DNA of 64,000 nt from Oryzias latipes (Eukaryota; Chordata; Actinopteri; Beloniformes; Adrianichthyidae), in NCBI RefSeq assembly GCF_002234675.1, contig NC_019876.2, positions 14,010,829 to 14,074,828 of the forward strand. Direction: 5' to 3'. The notes under the pieces were generated by a model. That model did no database searches, had not been told where the DNA came from, and was given only the letters and a program-made list of their open reading frames with translations. Made by a program: the position numbers and the translations under genes. Below, piece after piece: positions 31,701 to 34,700 of this stretch (positions within the stretch are counted from its first letter, which is position 1; every line of letters starts with the position of its first letter).

Positions 31701-34700
31701 TGGATGGATGGATGGATGGATGGATGGATGGATGGATGGTTGGTTGTTATCTGGGGAACTTTGGCTGTTACTTGATAGTTTTTGTTTTAAATGAGCTTCA
31801 ATCTGGAAGTAAAAAGATCTCCTGTTAGTTCCCAGAAACCATCCTAAGGGAATTTAAGGTACGCATTGAGTCAATTTTGCTGCTAAGAACCTACCAAATA
31901 TACATGTAAGGGGAGGGGCACGCTTGTCTTTTGAAGGTGGGATTAGCGGGTGAACTCTTTCTGAAAGTGGGTCGGCAGTGAAATGAAGCAGATGGTCATT
32001 CGGTGGGGTGTTAAAGTGTGAAGGGTGTCCAGCGTCACAGGTGATCAGAGTGACGCTAGTTTCCTTTCGCAGCTCACATCTGCTGCGTTCACCTTGACTG
32101 CCCTGCTGCAGTGGGTCTGCTCAAAGCCCATCTCTTTAGCTGCCAAGCTTTCACGTGGTTCCTTCAGCTTGACTCCAGGTGTGTGTGCCGCCGAGCACAG
32201 AGCGTGTCGCCATATGTGGCAGCATGTGCAGGGCTGCAGATGGACCCTAATGCCGTCAGATTAGCTCTGGGATGAAAGAAATGTGACATGCCCTCTTACC
32301 CTCCTCATTTCCCTCCCTTTCCCCATTCCCCCCTCCACCTCTTTCAATCTTCTCATCTGTTGTTTTTTCCCCCAACTTTTCCAAAAAAAAAAAAAAAGCG
32401 CAGCTTCCGGTCAGGGCAGACAGAATTGCCGACTGTTTTGTAGTTTCCTGTAATGTACACACGTAGAGCGACTTAATACCACAGGCGGGGCATGTTGTTG
32501 GTAAACAGATAAATATAGTGACTGGGCACAGTGTGTTCATATAGACCAGCACAGGAAAGAAAAAGTACTTCACTGCAAGAAGCAGGAGTCTAAAAATAGG
32601 ATGAAAAAAAAAACCCACAAATCTCAAAAAGAATATCATTAGAAAGTAGTAAATGATCTGTCCTTGCAGCAAGTCAGTTTTAATTTACAAGAAATCTTAT
32701 TAGAAAAACATAGAGTTTCACACAAGCATTCAAAAAGGGAAAAATAAGCTACAAAGTAACCTTTAGATAGAATTCTTTCAAACAAATGTTTTAAACCTCA
32801 ATCATAGGCATTTTTTGCTAGTTCTAAGCAAATGGTATTTTTTTTAGTTTTTATGTTCCTAATTGTAGTTCATTTAGATTACAGGGACAAAAACTAGAGT
32901 ATTAACTGAAAAAGGAATAATTTTAGTAGATATCTTAGTACATGCTGGCCCACCTTAACCCTTGTGCTATCCTATGACGTGTTCTCCCTACCATAACAAA
33001 GGTGGATAAAGGTGGAGAGGATTTCATGAAATCCATGGACACCAGTGAAGATCACAAATCATTGAAGAAAAAAGGTTCAGAGCACTGTCTTAAATTTAAA
33101 GGAAGAATATTTAACAGATACTGTATTTATTTATTAGGAAATATTTAACAAGGAACCAAAAAAACCAGCCATTAAAGCAGTGCTCGGTTTTCTAGGAACT
33201 GCAGATTAGAGGAATTCCAACAAGATCAAGGGATGTTTCATCAAACTCCACAAATGACTCGTCTTTGTGTGATTTTTATCAAATGACTGTGCTGCAGTCG
33301 GATATACGTGCGCTTTTCTTGCGACCGCCTGGCATCGTGACTCGCTAACCGGCAGGTAATCCCTCCGCGTAACAAATCAGTGGCCTACAAGCAGAGTTCA
33401 ATCACCAGATGGGAGCAGGTGGCTTAGCCCCTTTAAAAACAGGAAAGAGACGCGACGGCCGACTCAGACGAGGCGACAGGACGCGGCGGCGGCGGCGCTC
33501 TCTCTATCTAAAGGAGCAGAACCTAGGTGTAGTCGGATACTCGTTTCTGTGGGCGCCACCATGACTGTCATCAAAAGTGGCAGACCGTGAGTATTTGTAG
33601 TCAGAGCTGGGCTGCTTCTTCACCTCCCAACTGGGTTTTTACAAAGCCGTAGGACTAAATCAGGGTCAGGAGATGGTTTGGTAGAAGTAGATTTATAAAC
33701 CCAGCCTATTATTGATTTCAACTATGAAACTGTTGTGTCACTTTAAGTTTTTATCGTAAAAATGAACGTCTAAAAGTAGAAAAGTAAGCTTTGATGTAGA
33801 AAAAGACAAGAGAGATTGTTATTGCCATTGTCACAAGTAAAATCAAATTCAAAAAGGGCTTCCTGGTCCGCTAAATATGTGAAAATGTATGCCTGAAAAT
33901 AATAAATAAACATAAGAAATGCATCATTTAGTCACTAAAAGCAGGAAATTAAAATGACATTGTTGCTAGATAAAATTGGATTAGTCATTAAAAATAACAG
34001 GGAACATAGGTGATAAGTGTTAAAATTGTTAAAACCAGAAATAATGACATAAATCTGAAGGAAAACACCACACGACCACATTGGGGTCTAAAGAAAAAGA
34101 GTTCAAGCAGTCTAGAAGAAGTCCAGATTTAATTTTCATTTTTCTTAGCCATGTTTAAAATATTTATTGCAGTTGAGTAAAAGCTGATCTGAAGTCTTTT
34201 TTTCCTTTATGTAACAGTTTCTTACAAAATAAAAACAGGGAAGTTTCAAAAAGTAACTACAAATCATCATTGTTTGATTTATTTAACACTTAAACCTATT
34301 CACAACAAATAAAACATGATTCAAGAGTAAATAACAAATATACTAAACTTTAAATAAAAGTAATAAAAATTTGAGTCAGCTTGAGTTTTCGATATTGACT
34401 CACAAAGTGATCCGCTTAAGCCCCCAAAGCTGCCGAGTCACCAGCATCACGGTGACGCGGAGGAAGCCTCCTCAAGCTGTTGACACCAAAAGCAAGCATG
34501 TGCTGGGAGCAACACCTGTTCACAGGTGACTTATCACCGACGGCTGGTGTGGGTCTACGGTGACCCGGTCAGCTGGAGGCAGTGGGTCCGTTTAGCTGGG
34601 TTCTAAATTAAGATTTGTTTTTGTTTTTTTGTCATTTCAGAGTACCAACAGTTCCAGTAAAGAACCTGAATGGATCCAGCCCCGTGCACCCTGCACTGGC

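What the first reader, a model, noticed from the sequence alone, without database searches (positions are those of the whole stretch)
33400..33586. Candidate second promoter and first exon that would make a WWE-less Deltex-4
A GC-rich island deep in the 8 kb dtx4 intron has a TATA-like box, a leader, an ATG in good context and 26 coding bases ending at a strong GTGAGT donor. Its phase (2) exactly matches the phase required by the next constitutive exon. The product would be a 317-residue RING-DTC protein without the ADP-ribose/Notch-binding WWE domains. Such a form could ubiquitinate without normal substrate targeting, or act as a competitor. Human DTX3 shows that a RING-DTC layout is viable. 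I know of no described dtx4 isoform of this kind.
Basis: partly seen in the sequence, partly recalled or inferred. Interest (0 to 1): 0.75.

Follow-up and report, generated by a model that had tools for sequence, protein, structure and literature searches.

The report
Likely second start for dtx4
Inside a large intron of a fish Deltex-4 gene lies what looks like a small alternative first exon, also found in the gene's duplicate copy, that would make a short version of this ubiquitin ligase without its Notch- and poly-ADP-ribose-binding front half.

Summary
At 33561 a GCCACC-ATG opens 26 coding bases that end at ACC|GTGAGT in phase 2, the phase exon 3 needs. The spliced product is a 317-aa RING-DTC protein without WWE domains. 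TATA-like box, initiator, first ATG and donor in this order occur once in the 64 kb, both strands.

The decisive result came from the window's own genome. The dtx4 duplicate on contig C1 carries a matching exon just before its exon 3: MTVI start, phase 2 and the same 12-base donor GTGAGTATTTGT. Genome-wide, the ATG-to-donor pattern and an upstream pattern each match exactly twice, only at these two genes, reversed controls 0, while BLASTN finds no other significant similarity between the two introns.

Not shown: transcription, translation, start site, other species. The functional guess needs amending: the short form keeps the DTC ADP-ribose site, and published DTX2 without WWE is still recruited through DTC (PMC11345397). 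A conserved alternative first exon; new variant of a known kind.

The parts
33231..33680 (.). CpG-rich island in intron 2 of dtx4 (GC 0.52, CpG o/e 0.92, 28 CpG)
33352..33362 (+). GCAGGTAATCC block shared with the C1 duplicate (also donor-like, CAG|GTAATC at 33355)
33406..33412 (+). CAGATGG (E-box type) shared with the C1 duplicate
33416..33421 (+). second E-box CAGGTG, not at the matching place in C1
33424..33430 (+). TTAGCCC block shared with the C1 duplicate
33431..33439 (+). TATA-like box CTTTAAAAA (no TATA-like site of score 8 or more in C1 16700-17700)
33466..33466 (+). predicted transcription start (initiator CTCAGA)
   Evidence: inference
33466..33560 (+). predicted 5' leader, no upstream ATG
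   Evidence: inference
33561..33586 (+). coding part of alternative first exon (MTVIKSGR + CC, phase 2)
33587..33598 (+). donor GTGAGTATTTGT, identical in the C1 duplicate
34641..34702 (+). dtx4 exon 3, acceptor of the alternative first exon
34903..35064 (+). dtx4 exon 4
35144..35205 (+). dtx4 exon 5
35933..36253 (+). dtx4 exon 6 (RING and start of DTC)
36337..36426 (+). dtx4 exon 7 (DTC)
36916..37146 (+). dtx4 exon 8 (DTC end, stop)
22796..23003 (+). canonical first coding exon (WWE1), bypassed by the short form
25411..26593 (+). canonical exon 2 (WWE2 and proline-rich linker), bypassed by the short form

Best explanation
Intron 2 of dtx4 holds a second promoter and an alternative first exon. 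Transcription from the island near 33466 gives a short leader with MTVIKSGRP, which splices from 33586 to exon 3 and makes a 317-residue RING-DTC ligase. It lacks both WWE domains and the proline-rich linker but keeps RING and the DTC ADP-ribose site. The likely role is a Notch-uncoupled, DTC-guided ubiquitin ligase made in a tissue-restricted way (shared E-box). Shown from sequence: structure, phase, retained domains, recurrence in the duplicate gene. Inferred: transcription, splicing, start site, tissue restriction, activity, function.
For: Exon and phase. RING and DTC, no WWE. Ser/His/His/Glu of the ADP-ribose/catalytic site kept, by alignment to DTX2 chain 6y22. Single full core-promoter-plus-exon arrangement in 64 kb. 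Of 333 TATA-like sites on both strands, only 33431 lies among >=12 CpG in 200 bp. The C1 duplicate has ATG ACA GTC ATC ... |GTGAGTATTTGT, 23 bases, also phase 2, giving [16 protein letters not shown]; the 3-base length difference keeps the frame. The ATG-to-donor pattern matches exactly at 2 places in 734 Mb, both here, reversed control 0; the upstream block likewise 2 and 0. In C1 an in-frame stop lies 72 bases before the ATG and no AG between them follows a good pyrimidine tract, as a start codon predicts. BLASTN, + strand, finds no other significant similarity between intron 2 and the C1 intron (best E 0.43). MTVI plus phase-2 GTRAGT arises in 2 of 5000 shuffled C1 introns.
Against: No RNA, CAGE or protein data could be consulted. 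The two genome patterns were written from the two copies, so the two matches are by construction. Plain local alignment of the 60-base exon region to the C1 intron is not significant by itself (52 of 1000 shuffles reach it) and scores higher against the dtx1-like intron (35 against 31). The 320-base alignment is modest (5 of 2000 shuffles reach it; next-best place in the C1 intron 113 against 117). A default alignment lined up the donors and the GCAGGTAATCC and CAGATGG blocks but not the two ATGs. The C1 copy has no TATA-like site at score 8, its ATG lies in no stretch with >=12 CpG per 200 bp, and its ATG context fits Kozak at 1 of 7 positions, counted by eye. The donor is moderate. Codons 5 to 9 are not conserved. 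No MTVI exon was found in the dtx1-like intron or in the stretch fetched from the dtx2-like gene, whose exon 3 I did not locate. In the window itself the frame upstream of the ATG is open for 204 bases, so the upstream-stop test says nothing there.
Confidence: 0.78

Rival explanations
1. Same protein, different leader: transcription starts upstream of 33352, a non-coding first exon ends at the shared donor-like GCAG|GTAATCC (33355) and splices into an exon that carries the ATG (acceptor such as the one before 33514). The TATA-like box would then be irrelevant.
For: GCAGGTAATCC is shared by both copies and scores 3.09 as a donor, above the ATG exon's own 1.35 (the same 3.09 in C1). CpG density peaks at 33301-33500. 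An acceptor-like site precedes 33514. C1 has no TATA-like site of score 8 or more.
Against: The acceptor before 33514 has AAAG, a poor -3 base. In C1 no AG with a good pyrimidine tract lies between the upstream in-frame stop and the ATG. CAGATGG and TTAGCCC, also shared, would be intronic.
Confidence: 0.1
2. A conserved internal cassette (poison) exon of the full-length transcript rather than a first exon.
For: An acceptor-like site precedes 33514 and the donor is shared with C1.
Against: Read from exon 2, an exon 33514-33586 hits a stop after four codons, which leaves the shared in-frame MTVI unexplained; CpG island, TATA and initiator are unexplained too.
Confidence: 0.04
3. A conserved intronic enhancer or a promoter for a non-coding RNA; ATG and donor are incidental.
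For: Shared E-box block and CpG island.
Against: Identity is sharpest at ATG, codons 2-4 and the 12-base donor, and the length difference is 3 bases.
Confidence: 0.05
4. Chance: an intronic CpG island in which an ATG and a donor fall in phase.
For: Donor is ordinary; thresholds were chosen after the fact; plain local alignment to C1 is not significant.
Against: Two exact genome-wide matches only, both upstream of exon 3 of the two dtx4 genes; 2 of 5000 shuffled C1 introns hold MTVI with a phase-2 donor.
Confidence: 0.03

Closest known systems
Human DTX4 isoform 2
   Same: N-terminally shortened Dtx4 that loses WWE sequence
   Different: It lacks only residues 1-106 (WWE1 and 12 residues of WWE2) according to PMC8961608 (section 6); the form here loses both WWE domains and the linker and starts in intron 2
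DTX3 (WWE-less RING-DTC Deltex) and its N-terminal isoforms
   Same: WWE-less Deltex; alternative N-termini of 7 and 10 residues are known in human DTX3 (PMC10340142, passages)
   Different: A separate gene without WWE; here a WWE gene would produce a WWE-less form
DTX2 deletion of WWE (experimental construct)
   Same: RING-DTC without WWE; still recruited to DNA damage through DTC (PMC11345397, passages)
   Different: Man-made construct of a paralogue, not a natural isoform
Genes with internal promoters (for example zebrafish titin, PMC4720518, listing only)
   Same: An internal promoter within a gene
   Different: Different gene and domain logic

Membership tests
Deltex (DTX) E3 ligases | RING followed by DTC domain | tested here: met
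   317-aa product: DTC 1.3e-55, zf-C3HC4 4.9e-07; C3H2C3 spacing
Deltex (DTX) E3 ligases | ADP-ribose/catalytic residues of DTC (DTX2 Ser568, His582, His594, Glu608) | tested here: met
   S262, H276, H288, E302 by alignment to 6y22, taking the 235-residue chain to end at DTX2 residue 622; His582 and Glu608 as named in PMC7615817, the other two converted from the DTX2B numbering of PMC11345397
WWE-bearing Deltex subgroup (DTX1/2/4) | Tandem WWE domains | tested here: not met
   Absent from the 317-aa product, present in the 772-aa canonical product
Alternative first exon | Own start codon, phase-compatible donor, shared downstream exons | tested here: met
Alternative first exon | Conservation of ATG, donor and phase in a related gene | tested here: met
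   C1 duplicate
Alternative first exon | Conservation in other species | not testable with these tools
   no fish other than the window's own genome could be searched; viral and prokaryote collections gave no relative
Alternative promoter | Capped 5' ends at the island | not testable with these tools
   no RNA data held
Alternative promoter | Core promoter elements and CpG island | tested here: inconclusive
   Present in C18; TATA and CpG density not found at the C1 copy, where only the upstream block is shared

The most novel reading that the evidence does not exclude
Both dtx4 duplicates keep an old internal promoter and first exon that date from before they split. It makes a natural WWE-less Dtx4 under E-box (bHLH) control, so that one gene supplies a Notch-coupled, poly-ADP-ribose-reading ligase and a separate, tissue-restricted ligase guided only by the DTC ADP-ribose pocket (and, through RING, still able to reach TBK1 and CDK2).
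Probability: 0.4. Interest if true: 0.75.

Novelty: new variant of a known kind. Interest (0 to 1): 0.58.

Why it matters
What the WWE domains add to Deltex function is not settled: they bind Notch and poly-ADP-ribose, while the DTC binds ADP-ribose and can guide ubiquitylation on its own (PMC8961608, PMC7615817, PMC11345397; passages). A natural isoform that lacks WWE would separate these roles in vivo and could be removed without touching full-length Dtx4. Fish Dtx4 helps degrade TBK1, and a mutant without RING binds TBK1 and CDK2 poorly (PMC12803515, section 11), so the short form could bear on antiviral signalling independently of Notch.

Tried and rejected
Viral contigs and genome-contig scans with the 317-aa protein found no relative (39 stretches of genome contigs matched a short pattern but none was confirmed). 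Rfam found only a tRNA in the window. A sigma-70 promoter scan of the island is not meaningful for a vertebrate. CpG peaks in the other introns did not give a second promoter: the C9 peak and the 7281-8080 stretch of the C1 intron read to me as repeat sequence, a judgement by eye, not a test; the C1 peak at 2221-2840 overlaps the end of exon 2; the C1 stretch 16961-17280, 390 bases or more before the C1 ATG, was read but not tested further. BLASTN of the whole intron against the paralogue introns missed the shared exon as a whole; of its best hits against the island alone one was the 12-base donor. The exon was seen when the bases upstream of C1 exon 3 were printed. A search for the first eight residues of the alternative exon with at least 5 identical found nothing, because only MTVI is shared; a scan for ATGs with Kozak 3 or more did not print it either. 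One line (C1 canonical junction) was cut out of frame in my script and is not used; that C1 exon 2 also ends in phase 2 is.

Papers: 10 searches of the held library. No listing or passage that I saw describes a WWE-less dtx4 isoform from an internal promoter. Searches asked for any two of several terms; the 15 of 837 and 20 of 626 papers listed do not hold dtx4 or deltex, so they say little. Of the 9 papers I opened 1, of the 4 I opened 2, of the 5 I opened 2. Genome annotation databases were not available, so an automatically predicted isoform of this kind may exist. Passages or sections, not whole texts, were read of 11 papers: PMC10340142, PMC8961608, PMC11345397, PMC11269756, PMC7615817, PMC12803515, PMC3290631, PMC6365515, PMC10377948, PMC8595945 and PMC12480492.

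Full report
What is there. The window carries a complete dtx4 coding region on the + strand: eight coding exons from 22796 to 37146 give 772 residues with two WWE domains, a RING and a DTC domain. That the gene is dtx4 rather than dtx1 rests on recalled human sequences and on the own-genome search, where separate dtx1-like and dtx2-like genes lie on C9 and C14 (the names are mine). Intron 2 is 8 kb long. In it, 33231-33680 is a CpG-rich stretch (GC 0.52, CpG o/e 0.92, 28 CpG); its densest 200 bases hold 21 CpG, reached by 0.17% of 200-base windows in the 64 kb.

The candidate exon. Within the island, a TATA-like CTTTAAAAA at 33431 is followed by the only initiator match of 33440-33500 at 33466, then a 95-base leader without ATG, then GCCACC-ATG at 33561 and 26 coding bases to ACC|GTGAGT. 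Exon 3 needs phase 2, and 26 bases give phase 2. The product is [17 protein letters not shown]... of 317 residues. If not spliced, the frame stops after MTVIKSGRP.

Is it more than chance? Of 333 TATA-like sites at this score on both strands, one lies among at least 12 CpG in 200 bases, and it is this one. The ordered set TATA, initiator, first ATG, open frame to a donor at least this good occurs once in the window on both strands even at a Kozak threshold of 3 of 7; without the initiator one other place qualifies at Kozak 4. Shuffles of the intron reach the set with phase 2 in 4, 2 and 0 of 6000 at Kozak thresholds of 4, 5 and 6; whole-window shuffles give 395, 126, 32 and 2 hits in 1559 at thresholds of 3, 4, 5 and 6, both strands, any phase. 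The thresholds come from the observation and the weights from memory, so these are guides, not tests. The donor is the weak point: 1.35 against 3.02, 4.46, 5.13, 7.07, 6.15, 7.15 and 0.15 for the canonical donors.

Independent test in the duplicate gene. The genome that holds the window (734,051,031 bases, 25 contigs; size and contig number fit medaka, Oryzias latipes, by recall) gave one match to 33400-33650 at E 0.001 or better, the window itself; a request for weaker copies of the island did not complete. A protein search listed 39 matching places; a second dtx4-like gene lies on C1, minus strand, 6732893-6769993, with 87% identity in its first WWE exon and 94% over 54 residues of the RING/DTC part. 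I fetched its intron 2, that of the dtx1-like gene, and a stretch of the dtx2-like gene; exon 3 was located in the first two only. Just upstream of C1 exon 3 stands ATG ACA GTC ATC CGT TTC TCT CA|GTGAGTATTTGT. It shares the first four codons with one synonymous change, differs in length by three bases, is again in phase 2, and has the same 12 bases at the donor. Its product would start [16 protein letters not shown]. In C1 an in-frame stop lies 72 bases before the ATG and no AG between them follows a good pyrimidine tract, as expected for a start codon; in the window the frame is open for 204 bases upstream, so the test says nothing there.

How strong is this? The pattern ATGACNGTCATC-N8to20-GTGAGTATTTGT matches exactly at 2 places in the whole genome on both strands, these two, and the reversed control 0. 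The pattern was written from the two copies, so the two matches are by construction; the point is that there is no third exact match and that the second sits at the matching place in the duplicate gene. A second, upstream pattern (GCAGGTAATCC, CAGATGG, TTAGCCC at near-fixed spacing) also matches only these 2 places, control 0. GTGAGTATTTGT and ATGACNGTCATC each occur twice in the window and fetched introns (197,386 bases, both strands summed), once in each dtx4 gene. MTVI followed by a phase-2 GTRAGT within 60 bases arises in 2 of 5000 shuffled C1 introns.

Against this: a plain 60-base local alignment is not significant (52 of 1000 shuffles; the dtx1-like intron gives a higher score, 35 against 31). 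The 320-base alignment is modest, 118 against a shuffle mean of 90.4, reached by 5 of 2000 shuffles; scored in steps it is the best of 423 windows in the three stretches (117), with another place of the C1 intron at 113. A default alignment lined up the donors and the GCAGGTAATCC and CAGATGG blocks but not the two ATGs. The C1 ATG fits Kozak at 1 of 7 positions (by eye), as does the canonical ATG of the window. BLASTN of the whole 8-kb intron, + strand, finds nothing significant in the C1 intron (best E 0.43), so the duplication looks old and the short blocks stand out from diverged sequence. No MTVI exon was found in the dtx1-like intron or the dtx2-like stretch.

How it would work. The start codon and exon are used from an internal promoter; the shared E-box-type CAGATGG suggests tissue-restricted bHLH control (the motif assignment is recalled). 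The short protein keeps RING (C3H2C3) and DTC. The residues that correspond to DTX2 Ser568, His582, His594 and Glu608 are S262, H276, H288 and E302. PMC7615817 (passages) names His582 and Glu608 as important for ubiquitylation of ADP-ribose and cites a study in which PAR-targeted activity of DTX2 did not depend on WWE but on DTC. PMC11345397 (passages) reports that DTX2 without WWE is still recruited to damage through DTC, while WWE is the main binder of ADP-ribosylated factors. So the short Dtx4 should be an active ligase with DTC-only guidance and without the WWE contact to Notch. In fish, Dtx4 binds TBK1 and CDK2 and a mutant lacking RING does so poorly; three truncations were made, and the section's text gives results for that one only (PMC12803515, section 11). 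This function might therefore be kept. All of this is inference from paralogues and constructs.

What remains open. The start site is not fixed. C1 has no TATA-like site of score 8 or more near the exon and its ATG lies in no stretch of at least 12 CpG per 200 bases. The shared GCAG|GTAATCC is itself donor-like (3.09), so a non-coding first exon ending at 33355 is a real alternative; it would not change the protein. Conservation in other species could not be tested: no other fish could be searched. No RNA or protein data were available.

Known and new. Human DTX4 isoform 2 lacks residues 1-106 (PMC8961608, section 6) but keeps most of WWE2; zebrafish Dtx4a and Dtx4b are described there with two WWE domains. 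DTX3 is a WWE-less Deltex with alternative N-termini (PMC10340142, passages). In the ten library searches listed under Tried and rejected I saw no WWE-less dtx4 isoform from an internal promoter; annotation databases were not available. I file it as a new variant of a known kind: an alternative first exon of a Deltex gene, shared between duplicates. On checking, facts were mended but none required a change of odds.

Noticed in passing
window 22609-22615: ATGGAAG|GTAAAT in the 5' CpG-rich region of dtx4, the only other ATG of the window with Kozak 6 of 7 that runs open to a donor as good. Joined to exon 2 it fits phase 1 and would give a 705-aa form without WWE1 (a parallel to human isoform 2); joined to the acceptor before 22789 it is a short upstream frame ending in a stop. 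By eye C1 also has an acceptor-like site before its ATG, which favours the upstream-frame reading; the same exon was not seen in the 420 bases printed upstream of the C1 ATG.
   Followed up: partly
window 22796: The canonical dtx4 start codon has a poor Kozak context (1 of 7) while the alternative one has 6 of 7.
   Followed up: no
window 31122-31333 and 32955-33090: Copies of an interspersed repeat beginning TAACCCTTGTGCTATC; the second ends about 260 bases before the first shared promoter block. Its terminal 20-22 bases also match in the dtx1-like intron.
   Followed up: no
window 30315-30711: 416-column alignment at 67.5% with the dtx2-like stretch on C14 (E 2e-44), probably a shared repeat.
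   Followed up: no
window 20538-21158, 12399-12773, 53441-55252, 43728-44105: Open frames matching PTPRCAP, the WD40_4 model (the name coronin is recalled), PDZ and a Myb/SANT-like domain, so probably neighbouring genes (4 of the 10 open frames given had a Pfam match).
   Followed up: no
window 21972-22043: tRNA gene shortly upstream of dtx4.
   Followed up: no
G000 C1:6735466-6735546 and window 33352-33430: Promoter-proximal block whose exact pattern occurs only at the two dtx4 genes in the whole genome; what binds it is unknown.
   Followed up: partly
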